Source: Actinopolyspora mortivallis DSM 44261
GTDB lineage: Bacteria; Actinomycetota; Actinomycetes; Mycobacteriales; Pseudonocardiaceae
Direction: 5' to 3'
Assembly (NCBI RefSeq): GCF_000384035.1
Contig: NZ_KB913024.1
Location: 1,979,584 to 2,043,583 of the forward strand
Length of the DNA: 64,000 nucleotides
A program made the position numbers and the translations under genes. Below, one piece after another: positions 27,300-63,828 of this stretch (within the stretch, counting starts at the first letter, position 1; each line of letters opens with the position of its first letter). Under the pieces are notes generated by a model that was not told the origin of the DNA, did no database searches, and was given only the letters and a program-made list of their open reading frames with translations.

Positions 27300-30197
<2,898 letters not shown>

Positions 30198-30289
30198 CGC
30201 CAAAACCTCAATCGTCGCGGGCATCTCGGACAGAGCAGACGGCACTCCACGCGGAAGTACCGGCCTCCCCCTCTGTCAATGCCCGCGCG

Positions 30290-30482
30290 AAGCGGACGCC
30301 TGAGAGCTTCGCCCATGCATCCGGGCTTGCACCGTCGGCGGGGTTCCACCACTCCGTTGTGGCGAAGCCCTCTTTCCAGAGGTATCTCGCCCGTACGGTC
30401 CCATGGCCTGAGAGGTTATCGGGGAGGGGTTGCTCCTTCGGCGCCGTACCGGAGCCCTTCCGGCACGGACTCTCCCGTACGG
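30290..30482 (-). ncRNA. Tandem glycine riboswitch
   Basis: Read on the minus strand, aptamer 1 (about 30482 to 30405) runs from GTACGGGAGAGTCC through GCGCCGAAGGAGCAA to ACCTCTCAGG. Aptamer 2 (about 30396 to 30298) runs from GTACGGGCGAGATACC through CGACGGTGCAAGCCCGG to GCTCTCAGG. These are the conserved halves of the two-aptamer glycine riboswitch. In the gcvP leader it is expected to turn expression on when glycine is plentiful. A possible promoter lies around 30500-30530. Confidence 0.93.
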
Positions 30483-30590
30483 GGTCAGCGACAGCTGTGA
30501 GCGTACCTCATTGACGCCGGCTCGGAAATCGTACGCGTGCTCCTCTCGGCACCGTTTTCCCACAGTCCGGACCGCGGATCCGGTCGACGG

Positions 30591-49507: not shown

Positions 49508-50431
49508 GTGCTCAATCCGATACACCTGCGCACCCTGCAGGAGTGCGTGCGCACCGGTTCGTTCGCCGAGGCCGGCCGGATACTCGGATACACGGCCTCG
49601 GCCGTCTCCCAGCAGATGGTGCTGCTGGAACGCACCCTCGGTGCGAACCTGTTCGAACGTACCGCGCGCAGCATCCACTGCACTCCCCTCGCCGAACGAC
49701 TCGCCCGACGTGGCAGGGAGGTGCTCGGGGAGCTGGAAACACTCGAACGCGAGATCCGGGCCATGGCCGTGGGTGACGAGGGCAGCCTGCGGCTGGCCAG
49801 TTTCGCCACGGCCAACGCCCGGGTGCTCCCCGAGGTGCTGGCGGCGCTGGTCTCCGAACGTCCCCACGCACGGGTACAGCTCGACGAGGGGGAACCCGAC
49901 GAGGTCCTCGGGGACGTGCTCGAAGGGGTCGTGGACGCCGCCGTGGTCTTCGAGTACGACCTGGATCCCCGGTGCTGGCCCACGGAACTGCGGACCGAGG
50001 AGCTGCTGGCCGAACCGCTCCGCCTGGCCCTGCCCGAACAACACCGCCTGGCCGCCAGGGACAGCGTGGCGCTGGGCGAACTCGCCGAGGACTCGTGGAT
50101 CTGCACCCGGGACGACACCGCGGGAGGACGAGTGCTGGTACGCATGGCCGCCGCGGCCGGTTTCGTGCCGAACATCGTCTTCCGCAGCAACGACTACGGC
50201 GTGATACGCGACCTCGTCGGTCGCGGCCTCGGAAGCGCGCTGCTGCCCGCGCTGGCGGTCCCCGACGAGCAGCTGCGCGTCAAGCGGATATCGGGTGAGC
50301 AACCCTGCCGCAGGGTCAAGGCCATATACCGACCACACAACACCAACCCCCTGCTTCCCCTGGCTCTGGACCGTCTCGCGAAGTCCTGTGCCGCGCTGAG
50401 CGCGAACTGGCCCGCCGCGGAACCGGAGTGA
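49508..50431 (+). CDS. LysR-family transcriptional regulator
   Basis: 307-residue LysR protein: winged helix-turn-helix at 1-62 (LRTLQECVRTGSFAEAGRIL, YTASAVSQQMVLLERTLG) and a type 2 periplasmic-binding-like effector domain from about 88 to 295. GTG at 49508 begins the domain directly. Same strand as the aldehyde dehydrogenase and the keto-acid dehydrogenase, so it may be in their operon and control the AT-rich site at 47663-47703. Confidence 0.9.
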   Translation: MLNPIHLRTLQECVRTGSFAEAGRILGYTASAVSQQMVLLERTLGANLFERTARSIHCTPLAERLARRGREVLGELETLEREIRAMAVGDEGSLRLASFATANARVLPEVLAALVSERPHARVQLDEGEPDEVLGDVLEGVVDAAVVFEYDLDPRCWPTELRTEELLAEPLRLALPEQHRLAARDSVALGELAEDSWICTRDDTAGGRVLVRMAAAAGFVPNIVFRSNDYGVIRDLVGRGLGSALLPALAVPDEQLRVKRISGEQPCRRVKAIYRPHNTNPLLPLALDRLAKSCAALSANWPAAEPE

Positions 50432-50512
50432 GCCAAATCCCGCGCCGGGGTGCCGAACCGGACGTCCGGACCTCGGCCCGTCCGGAAAACGCCTCCCCTG
50501 ATCGGAAGAGAG

Positions 50513-52720
50513 ATGTCCCCGTCAGAGCACCAGCACACCGAACCGGTCGACGACAACTTCCCGCGCAGGGTTCGGGAGCTTTCCGCTCCGGAGACCCCTT
50601 CCTTCCCCCCGGGAACGGAACGGGCCGCACGGCTGCTGGACCTCTTCGACAGCCAGTGCGGCAGCAGACACCTGGATCTGGCAGCTCGTGAACTGGGAAA
50701 ACGCGGGGTCGGCTATTACAGCATCGGCTCGGCCGGACACGAGTCGAACGCGGCTGTGGCCGCGGCGTTGCGGCACACCGACCCGGCGCTGCTGCACTAC
50801 CGCTCGGGGGGCTTCTACCTGCGCAGGGCGGCCCAACTGCCGGGCAGTCAGCCACTGCGCGACGTGCTGCTCGGCGTCGTCGCCGCCGCCGAGGAGCCGA
50901 TCGCGGGTGGCAGACACAAGGTGTTCGGCAACGCCGAGCTGAGCGTGCTGCCGCAGACCTCCACCATCGCCTCCCACCTTCCCCGGGCGGTGGGGCTGGC
51001 CTTCGGTCTCGAACGAGCCGCCAAGCTGGGGGTCGAGTCGGAGTGGCCCCGGGACTCCGTGGTGGTGTGCAGCTTCGGCGACGCCTCGGTCAACCACTCC
51101 ACGGCCACCGGCGCGATCAACACCGCGTTGCACTGTGCCTACCAGCGGATCCCGCTACCGTTGCTGCTGGTGTGCGAGGACAACGGGATCGGGATCAGCG
51201 TGGCCACCCCGCGGGGTTGGGTGAGTCGGACCTTCGCGAACCGTCCGGGGCTGCCGTATTTCGCCGCCGAGGGCCACCGCCCGCTGGAGTGCCTGGAGAC
51301 CGCCGAACGGGCCGCCGCGTGGGTACGCGAGCACCGGGCCCCCGCCTTCCTGCACCTGCGCACCGTCCGCCTCATGGGACACGCGGGGTCCGACGTGGAG
51401 TCCGGCTACCGCTCCCGGGAGGAGATCCTCGCCGACTACCCACGGGACCCGCTGCTGGCCACGGCCGAGGCGCTGGTACGACACGGGGTACTCACCCCCG
51501 CAGAGGTGATCGACCGTTACGAGGCCAGGCGCGCCGAGGTCGCCGAGACCGCCGAGTGGGCCCTGGGAAGACGCAAACTGACCGGATTCGCCGAGATCGC
51601 CGAGCCGATCGCCCGGAACACGCCGGAGGGGATCCGCTCACGGGCACGGGAGCTCTCTGTCCCGACAACGGACTCCCCCACACGACAACGGCCGGAACTG
51701 ACCCTGGCCCAGAGCATCAACCGCTCTCTCGAAGGGATCCTGGCCCGGGACGGACGCACCCTGGTGTTCGGACAGGACGTCGCCCGCAAGGGGGGAGTCT
51801 ACGGGGTGACTCGCGGCCTGCACCGGAGATTCGGGGCCGGGCGTGTCTTCGACACCGTGTTGGACGAGCAGAGCATCCTGGGCACCGCGCTGGGCAGCGG
51901 GCTGACCGGACTGCTGCCCATCCCCGAGATCCAGTATCTGGCCTACCTGCACAACGCCGCCGACCAGATCCGCGGGGAGGCCAGCACCCTGGGATTCTTC
52001 TCGCGGGGACGCTACCGCAACCCCATGGTGGTGCGGGTGCCCGCCTACGCCTACCAGAAGGGGTTCGGGGGACATTTCCACAACGACAACAGTGTGGCCG
52101 CGCTGCTGGACATCCCCGGGATCGTGGTGGCCTCCCCCTCCCGTCCGGACGACGCAGCGGCCATGCTGCGCACGTGTGTCGCCGCTGCCGCCGTGGACGG
52201 CAGGGTCTGCGTGTTCCTGGAACCCATCGCGCTGTACCACACCCGCGACCTGTACGAACCCGGCGACGGGGCCTGGACGGCCGCCTTCCCCGCGGAGGGG
52301 GAGGTGGAGCTCGGATCCGCTCGCCGGTACCTCGACGGTTCCGACCTCACCCTGGTCACTTCGGGCAACGGTCTGGCGATGAGTCTCCGGGTGGCCCGGC
52401 GGTTGGGGCGGCACGGGATCGGGGTCCGTGTGCTGGATCTGCGCTGGCTGGCTCCGCTTCCGAGCGAGCGGCTGCACGCGGAGGCGGCGGCCACCGGCAG
52501 AGTGCTGGTGGTCGACGAGACCAGAGCCAGCGGGGGCATCTCGGAACGCGTGGTCACCGCGCTGGTCGACGGCGGCTTCTCCGGTCTCCTCCGGCGAGTG
52601 ACCAGCGGGGACTGTTTCGTCCCCCTCGGGGAAGCGGCCTACCGGGTGCTGCTGGACGAGCAGACCGTCGAAAAGACCGCGCTGGAGATGGTCCACTCGG
52701 AAGAAGGGGGGCGTGGATGA
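50513..52720 (+). CDS. Fused 2-oxoacid dehydrogenase E1 (alpha and beta in one chain)
   Basis: 735-residue thiamine-diphosphate enzyme in which the alpha subunit (about 1-370) and beta subunit (about 400-735) of branched-chain/pyruvate-type E1 are joined. The ThDP motif starts at FGDASVNHSTATGAINTAL and ends EDNGIGISV; the beta half shows VFGQDVARKGGVYGVTRGL, EIQYLAYLHNAADQIRGEA and RVLVVDETRASGGISERV. ATG at 50513 has GGAAGAG before it. No E2 or E3 partner is nearby, so it must use lipoyl proteins from elsewhere or act as a simple decarboxylase. Position behind the semialdehyde dehydrogenase suggests amino-acid breakdown. Confidence 0.88.
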   Translation: MSPSEHQHTEPVDDNFPRRVRELSAPETPSFPPGTERAARLLDLFDSQCGSRHLDLAARELGKRGVGYYSIGSAGHESNAAVAAALRHTDPALLHYRSGGFYLRRAAQLPGSQPLRDVLLGVVAAAEEPIAGGRHKVFGNAELSVLPQTSTIASHLPRAVGLAFGLERAAKLGVESEWPRDSVVVCSFGDASVNHSTATGAINTALHCAYQRIPLPLLLVCEDNGIGISVATPRGWVSRTFANRPGLPYFAAEGHRPLECLETAERAAAWVREHRAPAFLHLRTVRLMGHAGSDVESGYRSREEILADYPRDPLLATAEALVRHGVLTPAEVIDRYEARRAEVAETAEWALGRRKLTGFAEIAEPIARNTPEGIRSRARELSVPTTDSPTRQRPELTLAQSINRSLEGILARDGRTLVFGQDVARKGGVYGVTRGLHRRFGAGRVFDTVLDEQSILGTALGSGLTGLLPIPEIQYLAYLHNAADQIRGEASTLGFFSRGRYRNPMVVRVPAYAYQKGFGGHFHNDNSVAALLDIPGIVVASPSRPDDAAAMLRTCVAAAAVDGRVCVFLEPIALYHTRDLYEPGDGAWTAAFPAEGEVELGSARRYLDGSDLTLVTSGNGLAMSLRVARRLGRHGIGVRVLDLRWLAPLPSERLHAEAAATGRVLVVDETRASGGISERVVTALVDGGFSGLLRRVTSGDCFVPLGEAAYRVLLDEQTVEKTALEMVHSEEGGRG

Positions 52721-52893: not shown

Positions 52894-53787
52894 TCAGACC
52901 GGTTGTGGTACTCCTTCGGCCAGGCCGAGGTTGTCCACCACCTCGCGGGTGGCCTTGGCCCGGTTGAGACTGTAGAAGTGCAGCCCGGGAACCCCTTCGG
53001 AGATCAGCCGCTCGCACAGTCGGGTGATCAGCTCGATTCCCGCCGCCCGGAACGCCTCGGGGTCCTCGGCCAGCGGATCGAGCACCGCCGAGACCTCGGA
53101 AGGCACCGGAACCCCCGCCAGGTGTTCGAACTTGCTCAGTACCTTCGGGGTGGTGATGGGCATGACCCCCGGGATCAGGGGAACGTGGCAGTTCCGCGCG
53201 GCGAGACGGTCCCGCAGCCGGAGGAAGTACTCCGGTTGCAGGAAGAGCTGCGCGACCGCGAAATCCGCACCGGCACGGATCTTGTTGACCAGATGATCGG
53301 TCTCGATCTCCACGTCCGTGGAGCGCGGGTGCATGTGGGGGAAGGCGGCGACCCCCACCGAGAAGTCCCCGCAGGAACGGACCAGCCGTACCAGTTCGTC
53401 CGCGTAGAGGATGCCGTGCGGGTGCGGGATCCACTCACCCATCGGGTCCCCCGGCGGATCCCCCCGGATCGCCAGGATGTTGCGGATCCCCTCGTCGGCC
53501 AACGAGCCGACGACGTGTCGCAGTTCGTCCTTGGAATGGTCCACCCCGGTCAGGTGGGCCATCGGCAGCATGGTGGTCTCACGGGCGATACGCCCGACGG
53601 TGCGGATCGTGCGATCCCTGCTGGAACCGCCCGCCCCGTAGGTCACCGAGACGTAGGCGGGGTTCAGCGGCTCCAGTTCGCGCACGGCCTTCCAGAGGAT
53701 CTGCTCTTCGGCGTCGCCGCGCGGAGGGAAGAACTCCACCGAGAACACGGTCCTGCCCGGCTGTAGCCGGTCCACGACCCGAGTCAC
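52894..53787 (-). CDS. metF: Methylenetetrahydrofolate reductase MetF
   Basis: 297-residue FAD-dependent TIM barrel that makes 5-methyl-THF, the methyl donor for MetH. Motifs: FSVEFFPPRGDAEEQ near residue 14, NPAYVSVTYGAGGSSRDRT near 45, NILAIRGDPP near 105, AQLFLQPEYFLRLRDRL near 190 and FYSLNRAKATREVVDNLGL at the end. GTG at 53787 lies seven bases after AAGGAGG; a longer upstream frame is not supported. It is the last gene of the betaine/methyl-cycle block and is separated from ahcY by a hairpin. Confidence 0.95.
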   Translation of the reverse strand: MTRVVDRLQPGRTVFSVEFFPPRGDAEEQILWKAVRELEPLNPAYVSVTYGAGGSSRDRTIRTVGRIARETTMLPMAHLTGVDHSKDELRHVVGSLADEGIRNILAIRGDPPGDPMGEWIPHPHGILYADELVRLVRSCGDFSVGVAAFPHMHPRSTDVEIETDHLVNKIRAGADFAVAQLFLQPEYFLRLRDRLAARNCHVPLIPGVMPITTPKVLSKFEHLAGVPVPSEVSAVLDPLAEDPEAFRAAGIELITRLCERLISEGVPGLHFYSLNRAKATREVVDNLGLAEGVPQPV

Positions 53788-53824
53788 GTTCAGGCCTCCT
53801 TGTTGTCCTGGGCTCCACACACGT

Positions 53825-53855
53825 GGGTGGCCACCACGATCAGTGGTGGCCACCC
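53825..53855 (-). terminator. Hairpin between ahcY and metF
   Basis: Perfect 13-bp stem GGGTGGCCACCAC / GTGGTGGCCACCC with loop GATCA, 30 bases after the ahcY stop. No T-run; partial read-through into metF is possible. Confidence 0.75.
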
Positions 53856-53884
53856 GTGTCACACGTGTTCGTGCGCGGAGCGGA

Positions 53885-55348
<1,464 letters not shown>

Positions 55349-55406
55349 GATTTCCCTTCCTCGTTTCCTCTATCGGGCAGCTTCTGCGGCCTTGACGGCC
55401 GAGTCT

Positions 55407-58400
55407 TCAGGTGTTGAAGTACTTGGCTTCGGGGTGGTGTGCCACGAACGCGTCCGTGGACTGCTCCGGATGCAGCTGGTACTCCTCGGAGAGCTCCACA
55501 CCGATGTTCTCCGCGCCGAGCAACTCGACGATCTTGGCGCGATCCTCGAGATCGGGGCAAGCGCCGTAACCGAGCGAGAACCTCGCACCGCGGTAGCCGA
55601 GCTTGAAGAACTCCTCCACGTTCTCCGGGTCCTCGGAGGCCACGGTCAGACCCGAGGACCACTGCAGCTCACTGCGGATGCGCCGGTGCCAGTACTCGGC
55701 CAGCGCCTCGGTGAGCTGCACACCGAGCCCGTGGATCTCCAGGTAGTCCCGGTAGGCGTCGGCGGCGAACAGTTCGTTCGCGTAGTCGGCGATGGGCTGC
55801 CCCATCGTCACCAGCTGCAGCGGCAGCACGTCGACCTGCCCGGTGGCCTCGGCCTTCTCCCGCGAACGGTAGAAGTCGGCCAGGCACAGCCTGCGGTCAC
55901 GCTTCTGCCGGGGGAAGTTGAACCGGAACCGCTCCGGGGCGTCCGGGGCGTCCTTGTCGAGCACGACCAGGTCGTTGCCCTCGGACACGCAGGGGAAGTA
56001 CCCGTAGACCAACGCCGCGTGCTGCAGGATGCCCTTGGTGGCCAGTTCGTCCATCCAGGCACGCAGCCGCGGGCGTCCCTCGGTTTCCACCAGCTCCTCG
56101 TAGCTGGGGCCCTGTCCCTTCTTGGCACCGCGCAGGCCCCACTGTCCGAAGAACGTCGCGCGTTCGTCGAGCAGCGCCAGGTAGTCGTTGCTGGACAGCC
56201 CCTTGACGACCTTGGGTCCCCAGAACGGCGGGGTGGGCACCGGCACGTCGGGGTCGACGTCCGAGCGCACGCTGTCGTCCCGCTCGTCCGGTTCCGGCCC
56301 CTGCTCGGCCTTGCGCTTCTCCGCGATCCGGTTGGAGCGCTCGCGCCGGGCCTTGCGTTCGGCCTTCTTCTGGCGCTCCGCCTCGTCCTCCTCGGGGGAC
56401 TCGCCGTTCTTGGCCTGCATGATGCGGTCCATCAGCTTGAGGCCCTCGAAGGCGTCCTTGGCGTAGCGCACGTCGCCCTGGTAGAGCTCGTCGAGGTCGT
56501 TCTCGACGAAGGACCTGGTCAACGCGGCACCACCGAGCAGCACGGGGTACTTCTCGGCCAGTCCCCTGGAGTTCATCTCCTCCAGGTTCTCCTTCATGAT
56601 GACCGTGGACTTGACCAGCAGCCCGGACATGCCGATCGCGTCGACCTCGTGCTTCTCGGCCTCCTCGAGGATGGTGTTGATCGGCTGCTTGATGCCGATG
56701 TTGACCACCTCGTAGCCGTTGTTGGACACGATGATGTCGACCAGGTTCTTGCCGATGTCGTGCACGTCGCCCTTGACCGTGGCCAGCAGCAACCTGCCCT
56801 TGCCGCCGGAGTCCTCCTTCTCCATGTGCGGCTCCAGGTAGGCCACGGCGGTCTTCATGATCTCCGCGGCCTGCAGCACGAAGGGCAGCTGCATCTGGCC
56901 GGAGCCGAACAGGTCACCGACGGTCTTCATCCCGGACAGCAGCGTGTCGTTGACGATCTCGAGAGGCTTCTTCTCCTTCATCGCCTCGTCGAGATCGGCC
57001 TCCAGGCCGGTCTTCTCACCGTCGACGATGCGCTGCTCCAGACGCTCGAACAGCGGCAGGGCGGCCAGCTCCTCCGCCTTGGAGGCCCCGCTGGACTCCG
57101 CCGACTTGCCCTCGAACAGGGCCATGAGCTTCTGCAGCGGGTCGTAGGCCTCTTCGGTGTCGGTGGCCTCACGCCGCCGGTCGTAGACGAGGTCCAGGGC
57201 GACCTGGCGCGCCTCCTCGTCGATCTTGTTCATCGGCAGGATCTTGGACGCGTGCACGATGGCACTGTCCAGACCGGCTTCCCGGCACTCGTTGAGGAAC
57301 ACCGAGTTCAGCACCTGCCGCGCGGCCGCGTTGAGACCGAACGAGACGTTCGACAGCCCCAGCGTGGTCTGCACCTCCGGGTGCCGCTTCTTGAGCTCCC
57401 GGATCGCGTTGATGGTCTCGATGCCGTCCCTGCGGACCTCTTCCTGGCCGGTGGTGATGGGAAAGACCAGGGGATCGATGATGATCGCGGACTTGTCCAG
57501 ACCCCAGTTACGGGTCAGGTCCTCGATGAGCCGCTCGGCCACGCGCAGCTTCCACTCCGCGGTACGAGCCTGGCCCTCCTCGTCGATGCAGGTGCACACG
57601 ACGGTGGCACCGTGCTCGACGGCCATCTTCATGACGCGGTCGTAGCGACCGCCCTCCTCGGTGCCGTCCTCGTAGTTGATCGAGTTGATCGCGCACCGGC
57701 CGCCGAGGTGCTCCAGGCCGACCTCGATGACGTCGGCCTCGGTGGAGTCGACCATGATCGGCAGCGTGGAGGCCGTGGCCAGCCGCGAGGCCAGCTCACG
57801 CATGTCGTGCGTGCCGTCGCGGCCCACGTAGTCCACGCACAGGTCGAGCATGTGCGCGCCCTCGCGGGTCTGCGCCTTGGCGATCTCGACGCAGTCCTCG
57901 TAACGCCCTTCGAGCATCGCCTCCCGGAACGCCTTGGAGCCGTTGGCGTTGGTGCGCTCGCCGACGTTGAGGATCGAGGCTTCCTGCTCGAACGGGATCG
58001 CCTGGTACACCGAGGAGACCGAGGGGACGATCTCGGGTTCGCGCGGGGCCGGGTTCAGGCCGCTGACCGCCTCGGCCACCTGGCGCACGTGTTCACCGGT
58101 GACACCACAGCAGCCGCCGACCAGGCGTGCTCCGTAGTTGTTGACGAAGTCGACCAGCGCCTCGGACAGTTCCTCCGGGGTGAGCGGGTACACCGCCCCG
58201 TTCGGGCCGAGTTCGGGCAGTCCCGCGTTGGGCATGACCGAGATCGGAACCCGCGCGTGGTCGGCCAGCACGCGCAGGTGCTCGCTCATCTCGGCCGGAC
58301 CGGTCGCGCAGTTCATACCGATCATGTCGATGCCCAGCGGCTCGAGCGCCGTCAGCGCGGCACCGATCTCGGAGCCGACCAGCATCGTCCCGGTCTGCTC

Positions 58401-59012
58401 CACGGTGACGTGGGCGATGATCGGCACCCACTTGCCCTGGTCCCGCATCGCGCGTTTGGCGGCGACGATGGCGGCCTTGGTCTGCAGCAGGTCCTGCGAG
58501 GTCTCCACCAGCACCACGTCGACGCCGCCGTCGAGCATGCCGAGGACCTGCTGGTGGTAGGCGTCCCGCAGGTCCGCGTACGGTGCGTGGCCGAGCGTGG
58601 GCAGCTTCGTGCCCGGTCCCATGGAGCCCAGCACGAAACGTGGCTTCTCCGGCGTGGAGTACTCGTCACAGCACTCCCGCGCCAGCGCCACTCCCTTCTC
58701 GGCGAGATCCCGGATGCGGTCCTCGATCCCGTACTCGCCCAGGTTCGGCAGGTTGCAGCCGAACGTGTTCGACTCGATGGCGTCCGAGCCGTTCTTCAGG
58801 AAGCCCCGGTACACCGAACGGACGATATCGGGACGCGTCTCGTTGAGGATCTCGTTGCAACCCTCGAGGTTGTTGAAGTCCTCCAGGGTGAGGTCGTGCT
58901 CCTGCAACGCCGTACCCATGCCGCCGTCCCCGACGAGCACGCGTTCGGCGATGGCCGTGAGAAACCCACTCGGGTCGTTGTCCCGACGGCCCGATTCTTC
59001 CTGTGTCGTCAT
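55407..59012 (-). CDS. metH: Cobalamin-dependent methionine synthase MetH
   Basis: 1201-residue four-module enzyme that methylates homocysteine with methyl-THF through cobalamin. Homocysteine-binding module 1-330 (DGGMGTALQEHDLT; zinc cysteines in GMNCATGP and VGGCCGVTGEH), pterin-binding module about 345-630 (ILNVGERTNANGSKAFREA), cobalamin cap and binding module about 650-850 with the B12-ligand His751 in GDVHDIGKNLVD, and the AdoMet reactivation domain about 930-1200 (ADFYRSREKAEATGQVDVLPL, ARFSLGYGACPDLEDR). A charged Lys/Glu/Arg linker (about 855-915) is longer than usual. ATG at 59012 fits GGAAGG better than the GTG one codon upstream. adoK ends 20 bases before it; no cobalamin riboswitch is visible in this short gap. 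Confidence 0.97.
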   Translation of the reverse strand: MTTQEESGRRDNDPSGFLTAIAERVLVGDGGMGTALQEHDLTLEDFNNLEGCNEILNETRPDIVRSVYRGFLKNGSDAIESNTFGCNLPNLGEYGIEDRIRDLAEKGVALARECCDEYSTPEKPRFVLGSMGPGTKLPTLGHAPYADLRDAYHQQVLGMLDGGVDVVLVETSQDLLQTKAAIVAAKRAMRDQGKWVPIIAHVTVEQTGTMLVGSEIGAALTALEPLGIDMIGMNCATGPAEMSEHLRVLADHARVPISVMPNAGLPELGPNGAVYPLTPEELSEALVDFVNNYGARLVGGCCGVTGEHVRQVAEAVSGLNPAPREPEIVPSVSSVYQAIPFEQEASILNVGERTNANGSKAFREAMLEGRYEDCVEIAKAQTREGAHMLDLCVDYVGRDGTHDMRELASRLATASTLPIMVDSTEADVIEVGLEHLGGRCAINSINYEDGTEEGGRYDRVMKMAVEHGATVVCTCIDEEGQARTAEWKLRVAERLIEDLTRNWGLDKSAIIIDPLVFPITTGQEEVRRDGIETINAIRELKKRHPEVQTTLGLSNVSFGLNAAARQVLNSVFLNECREAGLDSAIVHASKILPMNKIDEEARQVALDLVYDRRREATDTEEAYDPLQKLMALFEGKSAESSGASKAEELAALPLFERLEQRIVDGEKTGLEADLDEAMKEKKPLEIVNDTLLSGMKTVGDLFGSGQMQLPFVLQAAEIMKTAVAYLEPHMEKEDSGGKGRLLLATVKGDVHDIGKNLVDIIVSNNGYEVVNIGIKQPINTILEEAEKHEVDAIGMSGLLVKSTVIMKENLEEMNSRGLAEKYPVLLGGAALTRSFVENDLDELYQGDVRYAKDAFEGLKLMDRIMQAKNGESPEEDEAERQKKAERKARRERSNRIAEKRKAEQGPEPDERDDSVRSDVDPDVPVPTPPFWGPKVVKGLSSNDYLALLDERATFFGQWGLRGAKKGQGPSYEELVETEGRPRLRAWMDELATKGILQHAALVYGYFPCVSEGNDLVVLDKDAPDAPERFRFNFPRQKRDRRLCLADFYRSREKAEATGQVDVLPLQLVTMGQPIADYANELFAADAYRDYLEIHGLGVQLTEALAEYWHRRIRSELQWSSGLTVASEDPENVEEFFKLGYRGARFSLGYGACPDLEDRAKIVELLGAENIGVELSEEYQLHPEQSTDAFVAHHPEAKYFNT

Positions 59013-59032
59013 CACGCTGCCTTCCGAACGCT

Positions 59033-60007
59033 TCAGCGAAGCACGGACTCGATCTCACTGGCGGCCTGGTTGCCGTACGCCTCGGCGAACCTGGCCACGA
59101 ACGATCCCTTGTCCACCTCGTATTCCTGCGGCCCGTCGGTTTCCAGGGACGTGGTCGCCAGGGTGCATCCGAGCTGGATGGAACGCTCGAGTTCCAGCCC
59201 GTTGGCCAGTCCCGCGAGGAAGCCCGCACGGAGCGCGTCGCCGACACCGGTGGGGTCGCCGACCTGCTTGGGCTTGACCGGAGCGATCTCGATCGTCGGT
59301 GCCGAGGCGGACTCGACACACACTCCGTTCTCGCCCAGTGAGGTGACCCACATGCCGACCTGCTGCAGCACTTCCTCGTGGGCCATGCCGGTGGTCTGCA
59401 GCAGCAGGCTGTGCTCGTACTCGTTGGTGAACAGGTACTTGGCCCCCTCCACCAGCTTACGGATCTGCGGGCCGTCCATCCGGGCGAGCTGCTGGCCCGG
59501 GTCGGCCACGAACTGGTAGCCGCGCTCGCGGCACTCCTGGCTGTGCCGCAGCATCGCCTCGGGATCATTGGCCGAGACGACCACGAGGTCCAGCCCACCG
59601 ACCCGGTCGGAGATCGGCTTGAGCTCGATCTCACGGGCCTCCGACATCGCCCCGGGGTAGAACGAGGCGATCTGGTTCTGCACCTCGTCGGTGGTGCAGG
59701 TGAACCGAGCGGTGTGGGCGGTCTTGGAGGTGTGCACCGCACTGGTGTCGACACCGTAGCGCTCCAGCAGCGCGCGGTACTCGGCGAAGTCCTCGCCGAC
59801 CGCGCCCACCAACAGCGACTTCACACCGAGCTGGCCGAGCCCGAACACGATATTGCCCGCGACACCGCCCCTGCGTACCTCGAGTTCGTCGACGAGGAAC
59901 GACAGGGAGACCTGGTCGAGCCGGTCCGCGATGAGCTGATCGGCGATCTTGCCGGGGAAAGACATCAGGTGGTCGGTGGCGATAGAACCGGTCACCGCGA
60001 TTTGCAC
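59033..60007 (-). CDS. adoK: Adenosine kinase (PfkB family, mycobacterial AdoK type)
   Basis: 324-residue PfkB kinase turning adenosine into AMP. Close to the mycobacterial AdoK text: VQIAVTGSIATDHLMSFPGK start, VSLSFLVDELEVRRGGVAGN, HTARFTCTTD, QIASFYPGAMSEAREIEL and DPGQQLARMDG; the catalytic Asp is in DPTGVGDALRAGFLAG near residue 255. The GTG at 60007 follows AAGGAG. Beside ahcY its role is to pull SAH hydrolysis forward by removing adenosine. A generic label 'carbohydrate kinase' would miss this. Confidence 0.92.
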   Translation of the reverse strand: MQIAVTGSIATDHLMSFPGKIADQLIADRLDQVSLSFLVDELEVRRGGVAGNIVFGLGQLGVKSLLVGAVGEDFAEYRALLERYGVDTSAVHTSKTAHTARFTCTTDEVQNQIASFYPGAMSEAREIELKPISDRVGGLDLVVVSANDPEAMLRHSQECRERGYQFVADPGQQLARMDGPQIRKLVEGAKYLFTNEYEHSLLLQTTGMAHEEVLQQVGMWVTSLGENGVCVESASAPTIEIAPVKPKQVGDPTGVGDALRAGFLAGLANGLELERSIQLGCTLATTSLETDGPQEYEVDKGSFVARFAEAYGNQAASEIESVLR

Positions 60008-60098
60008 TGCGAAAAACTCCTTCACCAAGGCCGATGTCGGTGGCCCGTCACCGGCCGGCGGTCATGTGGGGGACGGAAAGAACCTGGTGTTGCTCGCC

Positions 60099-60135
60099 AC
60101 GCCGCGGGGCGCGGGAGAACCGCGCCCCGCGGCGT
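60099..60135 (-). terminator. Strong hairpin between metK and adoK
   Basis: Perfect 16-bp stem ACGCCGCGGGGCGCGG (60099-60114) / CCGCGCCCCGCGGCGT (60120-60135), 5-base loop GAGAA, starting 30 bases after the metK stop. It splits the cluster into a GSMT-SDMT/metK unit and an adoK/metH/ahcY unit unless read through. Confidence 0.82.
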
Positions 60136-60165
60136 CGACGACACGTCACGTCACGTGTTCGGCTG

Positions 60166-61368
60166 TCAGAGGCCAGCGGCGTTCTTCAGGGCCTCGACGC
60201 GGTTGGTGCGTTCCCAGGGCAGGTCCACATCCGTCCGCCCGAAGTGCCCGTAAGCCGCCGTCGGCGCGTACATCGGCCGCAACAGGTCCAGATCCCGAAT
60301 GATCGCCGCCGGACGCAGATCGAAGACCTCGTTGATCGCCGCCTGGATCTTGACCGGATCCACGTTCTCCGTGCCGAAGGTCTCCACGAACAGACCCACC
60401 GGCGCGGCCTTACCGATCGCATAGGCCGTCTGCACCTCGATCCGACTGGCCAACCCCGCGGCCACCGCGTTCTTGGCCACCCACCGAGTCGCGTACGCCG
60501 CCGACCGGTCCACCTTCGACGGATCCTTACCCGAGAACGCGCCACCACCGTGCCGCGCCATACCCCCGTAGGTATCCACGATGATCTTACGCCCCGTCAG
60601 ACCACAGTCCCCCATCGGACCACCCGTGACGAACCGACCCGTCGGATTCACCAGCAGGCGCAGGTCCGTGGTGTCCAGTCCGACCCGCTCGATCTCGGGG
60701 TCGATGACGTGCTGGCGGATGTCGGGGGCCAACATCGCGTCGAGGTCGATGTCCTCGGCATGCTGCGTGGAGAGCACGGCGGTGTCCAGCTTGACGGGCT
60801 GGTCCCCGGCGTACTCGACCGTGACCTGGGTCTTGCCGTCCGCGCGCAGGTAGGGCAGCACGCCCTCCTTGCGAACCCTGGTCAGCCTGCGCGACATGCG
60901 GTGGGCCAGAGCGATCGGCAGCGGCATCAGCTCGTCGGTCTCGTTCGAGGCGTAGCCGAACATCAGCCCCTGGTCACCGGCGCCCTGCTGGGCGATCTCG
61001 TCGATGGCACCCTCGACGCGGGTCTCGTGGGCGCTGTCGACGCCCTGCCCGATGTCCGGGGACTGCGCGTCGATGGAGACGCTGATGCCGCAGGTGTTGC
61101 CGTCGAAGCCCTTGGCCGAACTGTCGTAGCCGATCTCCAGGATCTTCTCCCGCACGGTGGCGGGGATGTCCACGTCGGCCTCGGTGGTGACCTCACCGGC
61201 GAGGTGCACCTGGCCGGTGGTGATCATGGTCTCCATCGCCACGCGGGAGCGGGGGTCCTGGGCCAGCATCGCGTCCAGGATGGCGTCGCTGATCGAGTCG
61301 GACATCTTGTCCGGGTGGCCCTCGGTCACGGACTCACTGGTGAACAACCTGCGGTTCATCTCAGTCAC
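60166..61368 (-). CDS. metK: S-adenosylmethionine synthetase MetK
   Basis: Makes SAM from methionine and ATP. 400 residues with the family signatures [20 protein letters not shown] near the start, [12 protein letters not shown] near residue 120, and [19 protein letters not shown] near 265. GTG at 61368 is used here; an ATG three codons later is possible. It lies 56 bases behind the betaine methyltransferase gene and must be co-transcribed with it, which ties SAM supply to the demand of three SAM per betaine. Confidence 0.97.
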
Positions 61369-61424
61369 GGCTGAACTTCACCTCACTGCTGATTTCTTCG
61401 AACGTTCTTCGTACGCGACGGCTG

Positions 61425-63122
61425 TCATGCCCTGGCGTGGATGATGCCCCAGGCCAGGCTCCCGCCATTGCCGGCCTGCACCCAGTTGCGCAGTCCGGTC
61501 TTCATGTGGGTCCGGTACTCTTCGCCGATGAACTCGGCGAGTTCCTTTTCCCGACTCTCCAACACTTCCAGCACCCGGCCGTAGTGGACGGGCAGATACT
61601 CGCTGAGGTCCTCGAACTCGATGTTCTGCAGACCCAGCCGCGCCAGCTCCTTGCGGTAGAAACCGGGCGAACCGAGCGAATCCAGGTGCAACCGGTCCAG
61701 GATGGGACCGAGGTCGTTCTTGTTCGCCGAGTCCGCGGCCATCGGGTCGGTGAACAGCACCGAGCCCTTCGGCTTGAGAACCCTGACGACCTCTTCCAGA
61801 ACCCTGCCCCGGTCACCGCTGTGCAGGAAGGAGTCCTGCGACCAGACGATGTCGAAGGCGTTGTCCTGGTAGGGGATGTCCTCGAAGGAGCCGTCGGCCA
61901 CCTCGATCAGGTGCTCGAGGCCCTCGGCCCTGGTGATCTCACGGTTGCGCTGGTTCTCGACCTCGCTGAGGTTGAGGCAGGTGACGTGGCATCCGTAGGT
62001 CCTGGCCAGGTAGCGGGCGGCCCCGCCGTAACCGGCTCCCAGGTCCAGGATCCTGGTCGAGGAGTTGATCTCCACCTTGTCCGCCATCCGCTGGACGGTG
62101 CGCTCGCTGGCGGTGGCGATGTCCTCCTGCGGGGTCTGGTAGAGGCCGACGTGGATGTCGTTACCGCCCCAGACGTGGTAGTAGAAGTTGTCCGCGTCCT
62201 CCGAGTTGTAGTAGTCGCGTGCGGTGTGTACCGCACTCGAATACATGTCGATGAACTCGTCCTCGGTGCGGTAGTTCTTCTCCGCTATGTGAATGTAGAA
62301 GTCCGGCTCGTTCTCACCGTAAGTTTCCTGGAAGTCACCGTAGGTGTCAATCCGCTGGAAACCGACCTCACGCATGAGCCGCCGCATGTAGTCCTTCCGC
62401 AGCGGATACATGTTGAGGAAGAATTCGGACTTGTCCGGGAATGTGTACTTGAACCGCGCCAGACCGTCGTCGATGTAGTCCGGCTCCGCGGAAACGTCCT
62501 CACCAGCGTAGTAATAGGTGTGCTTGCTGGAGAACCCGTTGTCCAGAATCGAGTCGTAGTTCCGCTGGTCGATGATCAGGACACCGTCGTGCTTGAGCAT
62601 CGCGTAGAACTCGGCCAGGGTCTTGCGGCGGTCCCGCTCCGAAAACAGGTGAGTGAAGGAGTTGCCCAGACAGATGATCGCGTCGTACTCGCCGTGCACG
62701 TCCCGGTTGAGCCAACGCCAGTCGGCGTTGACCACACGCAGGATGTAACCACCGTAGGCCAGTCCGTTACTGAAGGCCTTGGCCAGCATCTGCGGGCTTC
62801 CGTCGGCACTGACGGTCTCGAACCCCTCTTCGAGAAGTCGAACCGAGTGAAAACCGGTTCCCGTCGCAGCGTCCAGCACGGTCTTGACACCGCGTGCGCG
62901 CAACTGATCGATGAAGAAGTTTCCTTCGCTTTCGTAGCGCTTCTTCCAGTCGATCAAATCATCCCACTTGTCGACAAAACCGCCGACGTACTCATGCGTG
63001 TAGTGATCAGTGTCGCGTACTTCCAACGGATTGTCGCCGAACGCCTGCTGCTCGCGGTACACCGGGTCCTGATCGTCCCCTTCCTGGTCACCACGGGCAA
63101 GATCGTCCACGCTCTTGGTCAT
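61425..63122 (-). CDS. Fused glycine-sarcosine N-methyltransferase / sarcosine-dimethylglycine N-methyltransferase
   Basis: One 565-residue chain carrying out all three methylations glycine to sarcosine to dimethylglycine to betaine. The N-terminal GSMT module (about 1-285) has SAM motif I TVLDAATGTGFHSV at 81-94 and RVVNADWRWLNRDVHGEYD (129-147). The C-terminal SDMT module (about 295-565) has its own motif I RILDLGAGYGGAARYL at 357-372 and DIVWSQDSFLHSGDRGRVLE. The fusion is known from Actinopolyspora halophila, while most halophiles use two separate enzymes. ATG at 63122 is six bases after GGGAG. The protein is acidic, as in halophiles. It heads the cluster, with metK directly behind. Product: the compatible solute betaine, in the cytoplasm. 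Confidence 0.96.
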   Translation of the reverse strand: MTKSVDDLARGDQEGDDQDPVYREQQAFGDNPLEVRDTDHYTHEYVGGFVDKWDDLIDWKKRYESEGNFFIDQLRARGVKTVLDAATGTGFHSVRLLEEGFETVSADGSPQMLAKAFSNGLAYGGYILRVVNADWRWLNRDVHGEYDAIICLGNSFTHLFSERDRRKTLAEFYAMLKHDGVLIIDQRNYDSILDNGFSSKHTYYYAGEDVSAEPDYIDDGLARFKYTFPDKSEFFLNMYPLRKDYMRRLMREVGFQRIDTYGDFQETYGENEPDFYIHIAEKNYRTEDEFIDMYSSAVHTARDYYNSEDADNFYYHVWGGNDIHVGLYQTPQEDIATASERTVQRMADKVEINSSTRILDLGAGYGGAARYLARTYGCHVTCLNLSEVENQRNREITRAEGLEHLIEVADGSFEDIPYQDNAFDIVWSQDSFLHSGDRGRVLEEVVRVLKPKGSVLFTDPMAADSANKNDLGPILDRLHLDSLGSPGFYRKELARLGLQNIEFEDLSEYLPVHYGRVLEVLESREKELAEFIGEEYRTHMKTGLRNWVQAGNGGSLAWGIIHARA

Positions 63123-63345
63123 ACTCAGCTCCCACTCGCGTTGGTCAAGCGCCACTGCACCGCTCGGAACCGCGGCGAATTTCGCCGCCCCGAGCTTTCA
63201 CGGGCGCGCCGGGTCACCTCACACAAGGGGCACGCCGGACCGATGCGGGCAGCCGCCTGACGGGCCGCGCACTGACACCGATCAGCACACTCGGTCGGCA
63301 CCTTTGCCGTCCGATCCCGACGCAGATTCCGTACGCCGAGAACCC
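63123..63345 (-). promoter_or_regulatory. Long untranslated leader of the betaine operon
   Basis: About 220 bases lie between the predicted promoter and the GSMT-SDMT start. The transcript has several GC-rich stems (for example around CCGACCGAGTGTGCTGATCGG) but I could not match it to SAM-I/II/IV, SAH or glycine riboswitch consensus. It may be a new leader element or simply a long UTR. Confidence 0.4.
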
Positions 63346-63373
63346 AACTTAGGCGCATTCACGGAAAATGCAA
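63346..63373 (-). promoter_or_regulatory. Predicted promoter of the betaine/methyl-cycle operon
   Basis: On the minus strand TTGCAT (63373-63368) and TAAGTT (63351-63346) are 16 bases apart, in an AT-rich stretch. Alternative -10-like boxes (TATGAT near 63400) also exist. Confidence 0.35.
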
Positions 63374-63529
63374 CAGCAAATAGCTGTGACCCTAATCATA
63401 AAAATAGTAGGATCGCATGATTCACGTGATCACCCACCGTGAAAAAATCCGCCCTCACCTGGAGAAATTCGCTCTTTCGCCCCGCAGGTCACGATCTGAC
63501 AAAGGCGTTCGATCCGAACTTGACGTACA

Positions 63530-63550
63530 ATACGCGTGCGCGGCGCGTAT
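63530..63550. promoter_or_regulatory. Dyad ATACGCG-N7-CGCGTAT
   Basis: Perfect 7-bp inverted repeat about 160-180 bases upstream of the predicted betaine promoter, directly after TTGACGTACA. Candidate operator; the surrounding 63374-63828 has no gene that I can support. Confidence 0.35.
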
Positions 63551-63828
63551 CACGAAAACCACGCGAGGTGCAAGAGTGCGATCGGACGAACCCGAGGCCC
63601 CGACAGGGGGAGTTTCCGCGTTCCGTATTCGCTTCTGCCCGTTCCATCGCAGGAGAGGGCACGGATGTTACGCTCGTACTCCGATGACGGTGAGACACCC
63701 CACCCCCAGTCGAACCGGAACCTCTTTTCGCAGCTCAGCGCCCCTTCGAGGGCCGAAGAACCCCGGACGGGGTCTCCACCTCCCCTAGCTCCGTACCTCC
63801 ACGCCCCCTGATTCTTTTCTACTTTATT

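What the first reader, a model, noticed from the sequence alone, without database searches (positions are those of the whole stretch)
52894..63122. Complete betaine-from-glycine pathway fused to a full methyl-regeneration cycle in one locus
Six same-strand genes encode GSMT-SDMT, MetK, AdoK, MetH, AhcY and MetF. Each betaine costs three SAM and produces three SAH; every enzyme needed to remake SAM, remove SAH and adenosine and supply methyl-THF sits in the same 10 kb. Housekeeping genes that are normally scattered appear to have been gathered behind an osmolyte gene, which would make methyl flux salt-inducible. I know of no named system of this completeness.
Basis: partly seen in the sequence, partly recalled or inferred. 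Interest (0 to 1): 0.9.

Follow-up and report, generated by a model that had tools for sequence, protein, structure and literature searches.

The report
Betaine gene cluster with methyl recycling
A salt-loving actinomycete keeps the gene that makes the protective solute glycine betaine next to the genes that recycle the methyl groups it uses up; this arrangement has been published before, and here its spread, swapped parts and conserved control region are described.

Summary
The six genes are really there, on one strand at 52894-63122, in the order gsmt-sdmt, metK, adoK, metH, ahcY, metF. The host is an Actinopolyspora. The claim of no precedent fails: Imhoff et al. 2020, Table 4, list 'fusedMT-MAT-o-MS-SAHase-MTHFR' for Actinopolyspora halophila, with 'o' where adoK lies, and a 2022 paper lists sahH, metH, adoK, metK and GSMT at one Saccharopolyspora erythraea locus.

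Added here: metK-adoK-metH-ahcY follows gsmt-sdmt in 32 of the 79 closest loci and is not seen in at least 28. In the window genome ahcY and adoK showed no second copy; metK has a paralog, metH and metF have likely stand-ins. The reductase slot holds FAD-type MetF (11 loci) or MTHFR_2 (9). The two metK copies undergo gene conversion. A conserved, possibly structured leader of about 200 nt precedes gsmt-sdmt in the Actinopolyspora-Saccharopolyspora group. One of 16 relatives without gsmt-sdmt carries metK-adoK-metH-ahcY. Salt induction is untested.

The parts
61425..63122 (-). fused glycine-sarcosine / sarcosine-dimethylglycine N-methyltransferase (gsmt-sdmt, 565 aa)
   Evidence: start
60166..61368 (-). 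metK, S-adenosylmethionine synthetase (block copy; 3' part identical over 453 nt to the second metK of the genome)
59033..60007 (-). adoK, adenosine kinase (PfkB family)
55407..59012 (-). metH, cobalamin-dependent methionine synthase
53885..55348 (-). ahcY, S-adenosylhomocysteine hydrolase (only copy found in the genome)
52894..53787 (-). metF, FAD-type methylenetetrahydrofolate reductase
63156..63354 (-). conserved 5' leader, possibly a structured RNA (the modelled stretch includes the promoter's -10-like box)
63346..63373 (-). promoter-like TTGCAT-N16-TAAGTT, similar in relatives
   Evidence: consensus recalled
63386..63399 (-). operator-like ATGATTAGGGTCAC, imperfect palindrome; GTGA-N6-TCAC in Saccharopolyspora
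60098..60137 (-). 16-bp hairpin between metK and adoK, terminator-like or attenuator-like, no T run
53825..53855 (-). 13-bp hairpin between ahcY and metF

Best explanation
This is the known actinomycete block for making glycine betaine from glycine with its methyl cycle supplied in cis. GSMT-SDMT methylates glycine three times and releases three SAH. AhcY splits SAH to homocysteine and adenosine, which relieves product inhibition. AdoK removes adenosine, so the reversible AhcY reaction runs forward. MetF supplies methyl-THF, MetH remakes methionine and MetK remakes SAM. Shown here: gene identity by homology, order, distribution and replacement of some slots. Inferred from the enzyme families: the reactions and the flux logic. 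Not shown: co-transcription and the inducing signal. Regulation probably acts at two points or more, the leader before gsmt-sdmt and a second point around metK/adoK (inference).
For: Gene identities. Core order in 32 of 79 loci; 11 more begin as the block and are cut by the locus end. Of 43 family genomes queried with the other five proteins, 23 of 27 with gsmt-sdmt carry metK-adoK-(metH)-ahcY behind it (20 contiguous, 3 judged split by contig ends), against 1 of 16 without gsmt-sdmt. Of 26 loci where the slot behind ahcY could be judged, MetF fills it in 11 and MTHFR_2 in 9; these match different solved enzymes. G003's block MetH is only 33% identical to the window's. Published: SAH strongly inhibits these methyltransferases and co-location is read the same way (passages of PMC7824335, and PMC3176816).
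Against: 28 of 79 loci have gsmt-sdmt with none of the other genes in at least 3000 nt seen after it, so linkage is not needed for the pathway. 6 of the 26 loci show neither reductase. Hairpins lie between some of the genes. In S. erythraea metK of the block is under PhoP and GlnR, so the flux may also serve other methylations.
Confidence: 0.87

Rival explanations
1. The block is mainly a general methyl-cycle (SAM supply) operon of this lineage, serving all methylations, and gsmt-sdmt merely sits at its front.
For: ahcY and adoK are the only copies found in the window genome. G027 has metK-adoK-metH-ahcY without gsmt-sdmt. In S. erythraea, overexpression of the regulators PhoP or GlnR raised metK expression and SAM (passages).
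Against: The cassette is found in 1 of 16 genomes without gsmt-sdmt against 23 of 27 with it. A second metK is kept elsewhere.
Confidence: 0.3
2. The order is simple inheritance from one ancestor, without present selection for linkage.
For: In the relabelled trees 29 of 40 block AhcY rows lie in one clade of moderate support (92/86), and 30 of 40 block MetH rows in one clade (support 100); for MetH the starred branches force only 1 change.
Against: AhcY of canonical type sits in the Tamaricihabitans, G073 and L024 blocks; the AhcY label 'block' needs 5 changes and starred branches force 5, one of them due to a stand-alone AhcY copy of G079. MetH of G003 is a divergent type. MetF or MTHFR_2 follows ahcY.
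Confidence: 0.12
3. The block is a natural-product SAM-regeneration cassette that picked up a betaine methyltransferase.
For: Such cassettes near biosynthetic genes are recalled by me, not from a call; in G027 a SARP-type regulator lies beside metK.
Against: The immediate neighbours of the window block are an acyl-CoA ligase and an E1 dehydrogenase with a LysR regulator; I did not scan further out for biosynthetic genes.
Confidence: 0.05

Closest known systems
Actinopolyspora halophila betaine cluster, 'fusedMT-MAT-o-MS-SAHase-MTHFR' (Imhoff et al. 2020, PMC7824335, Table 4)
   Same: Same genus and same order of five named genes; an unnamed 'o' stands where adoK lies.
   Different: adoK is not named in that row; copy numbers, slot swaps and a leader are not in the passages I saw.
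Saccharopolyspora erythraea SACE_3900 locus (PMC9206729, Fig. 1 legend)
   Same: sahH, metH, adoK, metK, glycine sarcosine N-methyltransferase and an acetyl-CoA synthetase gene, as in the window plus its upstream neighbour.
   Different: Studied for SAM supply and erythromycin; betaine and salt do not appear in the passages I saw.
Halorhodospira GMT-DMT-MAT-SAHase-MTHFR and Roseivivax roseus fusedMT-MTHFR-MS-MAT-SAHase (PMC7824335)
   Same: Same functions gathered behind the betaine methyltransferases.
   Different: Separate methyltransferases and methionine synthase elsewhere in Halorhodospira; different order and no adoK in the Roseivivax row.
Methanohalophilus portucalensis sams-sahh-gsmt-sdmt (PMC3176816)
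   Same: SAM synthetase and SAH hydrolase next to the methyltransferases.
   Different: Archaeal, unfused; no metH, metF or adoK among the genes named for the 3.9 kb fragment.

Membership tests
[quoted passage not shown]
   5gwx/5h02, E about 1e-121, residues 25-283
[quoted passage not shown]
   2o57, E 5e-72, residues 300-560
[quoted passage not shown]
   needs an enzyme assay
Betaine cluster with complete methionine cycle (A. halophila type) | order fusedMT-MAT-o-MS-SAHase-MTHFR | tested here: met
   against Table 4
   hairpins at 60098-60137 and 53825-53855 make a single transcript doubtful
Dedicated duplicate SAM-regeneration cassette | second copy of each gene elsewhere | tested here: not met
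   metK yes; ahcY none at E 1e-60, adoK none at E 1e-40; metH none at E 1e-150 and metF none at E 1e-25, but a MetE-type gene and MTHFR_2 exist
Known riboswitch or leader RNA | match to an Rfam family | tested here: not met
   no match at E up to 5 over 63080-63600
Structured cis-regulatory RNA (any) | compensatory base changes | tested here: inconclusive
   97.0% of cells paired, 29 double-change cells against shuffled mean 10.5 (0/500), but 9 double-change pairs reached by 16/500 and pair types by 21/500 shuffles; single-sequence z -1.32 for 63130-63330

The most novel reading that the evidence does not exclude
The block is controlled by an undescribed cis-acting leader RNA. It is about 200 nt, present once as a strong match per genome, found before gsmt-sdmt in the Actinopolyspora-Saccharopolyspora group, and would sense ionic strength or a methyl-cycle or betaine metabolite. 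The complete cycle is under selection strong enough that two probably convergent methylene-THF reductases were recruited to the same slot.
Probability: 0.3. Interest if true: 0.6.

Novelty: already known. Interest (0 to 1): 0.36.

Why it matters
The block is a compact natural answer to the methyl cost of betaine, useful for engineering SAM-hungry pathways. The slot swaps (MetF or MTHFR_2, two MetH types, different AhcY lineages) make a natural test of selection for linked pathway function, and the leader and the metK conversion give directly testable leads on control.

Tried and rejected
Known riboswitches at the leader: no Rfam match at E up to 5; the only Rfam match in the window at gathering thresholds is a glycine riboswitch at 30386-30487. 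The leader model in other clades: 12 strong matches among 73 sources, all in the Actinopolyspora-Saccharopolyspora group, the rest at E 0.49 or worse; in 9 of 22 genomes nothing better than E 0.036. Upstream regions of four other groups of loci were aligned and looked at by eye, output partly cut. A CRP-like reading of the palindrome is recalled and untested. 'All methyl-cycle genes are sole copies' was my first reading; others (MetE type; MTHFR_2) corrected it. In the trees the row L114 was labelled hk by my mistake; one search repeats them with corrected labels, and its counts are the ones used. Literature searches: searches found nothing; some searches listed the papers used; (metK gene conversion) listed one unrelated paper. 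Passages of PMC7042295, PMC10992897 and PMC9062515 were seen and not needed, except that PMC7042295 reports THF-metabolism genes next to the methyltransferases of Halorhodospira halophila. I did not search the literature for the leader or for MTHFR_2 in betaine clusters.
Full report
What is there. Six ORFs on the minus strand fill 52894-63122. Transcribed order: gsmt-sdmt, metK, adoK, metH, ahcY, metF. Pfam and solved-structure matches support the names, including adenosine kinase for the PfkB protein. The window lies in a 4,233,350-base single-contig genome, and its fused methyltransferase is 91-94% identical to those of five named Actinopolyspora species, so the host is an Actinopolyspora. 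Upstream, reaching beyond the window, lies an acyl-CoA ligase gene in the same orientation, 783 nt from the longest gsmt-sdmt frame (domain).

It is in print. I saw passages of PMC9206729 (2022): its Fig. 1 legend lists sahH, metH, adoK, metK, glycine sarcosine N-methyltransferase and acs with SACE_3900 of Saccharopolyspora erythraea; PhoP and GlnR bind upstream of this metK and activate it. Passages of PMC3176816 describe a smaller archaeal version. So the central claim of novelty fails.

Distribution. A genome-contig scan with the fused protein found 285 relatives; the best 80 were kept, giving 79 loci. In 32 of 79 the core metK-adoK-metH-ahcY follows gsmt-sdmt; 11 start as the block and are cut by the locus end (one of these, L046, has no metH before the cut); 1 has metK only; 28 show none of these genes with at least 3000 nt seen after; 7 show none with less sequence seen. 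Carriers include Actinopolyspora, Halosaccharopolyspora, Saccharopolyspora, Saccharomonospora, Prauserella, Tamaricihabitans, Jiangella and Phytoactinopolyspora; gsmt-sdmt without the block is seen in Nocardiopsis, Streptomonospora, Actinomadura, Actinomycetospora and Streptomyces. Several Saccharopolyspora are soil or plant organisms (recalled), so the block is probably not confined to halophiles.

Relatives without gsmt-sdmt. Of 150 family genomes, 63 match the fused protein at E 1e-30 (three of them, G050, G082 and G139, as two adjacent unfused halves). I took 43 (27 with, 16 without) through AhcY, MetH, MetF, MetK and AdoK (AhcY was run on 60 that include these). With gsmt-sdmt: 23 of 27 carry metK-adoK-(metH)-ahcY behind it. 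Twenty are contiguous (G017 lacks metH there; G003 has a divergent MetH). Three are judged split by contig ends: G117 and G133 by metK pieces at contig ends, and G116, less surely, by adoK-metH-ahcY at a contig start with no metK found. G118, G098, G002 and G050 lack it. Without gsmt-sdmt: 1 of 16 (G027) carries metK-adoK-metH-ahcY, with a SARP-type regulator, a sigma factor and an aldolase gene near it; 1 more (G021) has metK-ahcY only.

Copy numbers in the window genome. ahcY 1 (E 1e-60) and adoK 1 (E 1e-40), both in the block. metK 2. metH 1 at E 1e-150, but a MetE-type match in a 772-aa frame lies at C1:2903808. metF 1 at E 1e-25, but MTHFR_2 lies at C1:1632727. The block is thus neither a full duplicate set nor the only supply of every step.

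Slots are refilled. Behind ahcY, MetF (PF02219) is found in 11 loci and MTHFR_2 (PF19345) in 9; 6 show neither with at least 1000 nt seen; 6 core loci end too soon to tell. MTHFR_2 of G003 matches solved methylenetetrahydrofolate reductases 8bgr and 7wmw (E 1e-131 and 2e-121) and no PF02219; the window's MetF matches 3apt and others. The abstract of PMC11094777 describes flavin-independent and FAD-dependent reductases as most likely convergent; that MTHFR_2 is its flavin-independent type is my inference. G012 has both in the block. G003's block MetH is 33% identical to the window's. On the AhcY tree with corrected labels the 40 block rows need 5 changes and starred branches force 5, one of them from a stand-alone AhcY of G079; on the MetH tree (quick method) the 40 block rows need 3 changes and only 1 is forced. 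Tamaricihabitans, L024 and G073 block AhcY copies fall among canonical ones. So replacement is well supported for AhcY and for the reductase, and for MetH in G003 only.

metK gene conversion. The two metK of the window genome are 88.6% identical, but 453 nt of the 3' part are identical. All 151 third codon positions match there, while the copies match their G072 counterparts at only 107 and 106 of 151. Over 18 genomes (in G003, G014 and G073, which have more than one further metK, I used the most similar; G112's second copy aligned only in part), the nearest neighbour is the genome's own paralog for 20 of 36 sequences in the 3' part, 15 and 13 of 36 in the two 5' parts, and 1 of 36 in nt 600-740. 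In G120 and G073 no identical run of 40 nt or more was found, and G013 has one of 50 nt. Conversion thus recurs, not everywhere, and spares one central segment. Seven of the 79 loci end at a contig end inside metK (L004-L007, L009, L020, L035), as such repeats would cause.

Control region. In 24 of 80 upstream regions (window, L003-L023, L030, L071) an element ATGAT-N5-TCAC or GTGA-N6-TCAC lies at a similar distance; in the other 56 it was not found. GTGA-N6-TCAC occurs in 16 of 80 against a shuffled mean of 0.36, but these are relatives, not independent. Downstream lie a promoter-like pair and a conserved leader. RNAalifold gives 46 pairs on 21 sequences; 97.0% of cells pair, and 29 cells show double changes against 10.5 in shuffles. 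Against: the structure was derived from the same alignment, 16/500 shuffles reach the number of double-change pairs and 21/500 the pair types, and the stretch 63130-63330 alone folds with z -1.32. A covariance model finds one strong match (E 3e-31 or better), just upstream of gsmt-sdmt, in 13 of 22 genomes; some of these are of the species used to build it and match by construction. The other 9, five of them block carriers of other clades, show nothing better than E 0.036. No Rfam family matches.

Transcription. The metK-adoK gap folds strongly in many of 25 loci examined (for instance -81 kcal/mol in 145 nt of L003) but weakly in others (L025, L047, L059, L072) (no shuffle control was made). 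With the PhoP/GlnR result in S. erythraea, separate control of metK or of adoK-metH-ahcY is plausible; a single salt-induced operon is not shown.

Verdict. Observation confirmed; interpretation partly supported; the cluster is already known. The additions are the taxonomic spread, the reductase slot swap, metK conversion and the leader; I did not test whether those additions are in print beyond the searches named.

Noticed in passing
window 30386-30487 (-): Glycine riboswitch (68.6 bits) upstream of a 981-aa ORF at 27300-30245 that reads like glycine cleavage P protein (name recalled, not searched); glycine is the betaine precursor.
   Followed up: partly
G000:C1:1142693-1143874 (in L082) and window 60166-61368: Two metK genes about 0.9 Mb apart share a 453-nt identical 3' tract: gene conversion, recurring in relatives.
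   Followed up: yes
L088 5074-14107 and L087: Methyl-cycle genes grouped away from gsmt-sdmt: in G002 a MetF, a MetE-like, metK, adoK, ahcY and formate-THF ligase; in G003 metK, adoK and ahcY within 8 kb.
   Followed up: partly
L017: Saccharopolyspora dendranthemae contig end carries gsmt-sdmt-metK twice in inverted orientation, each with the leader; possibly an assembly artefact.
   Followed up: no
G117:C3:102326, G072:C2:1677360 and others: Several relatives hold a separate GSMT-only paralog, 69-76% identical to the N half of the fused protein.
   Followed up: no
window 49508-52720 (+): LysR-type regulator followed by an E1 dehydrogenase with transketolase-like C part, convergent with metF.
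   Followed up: no
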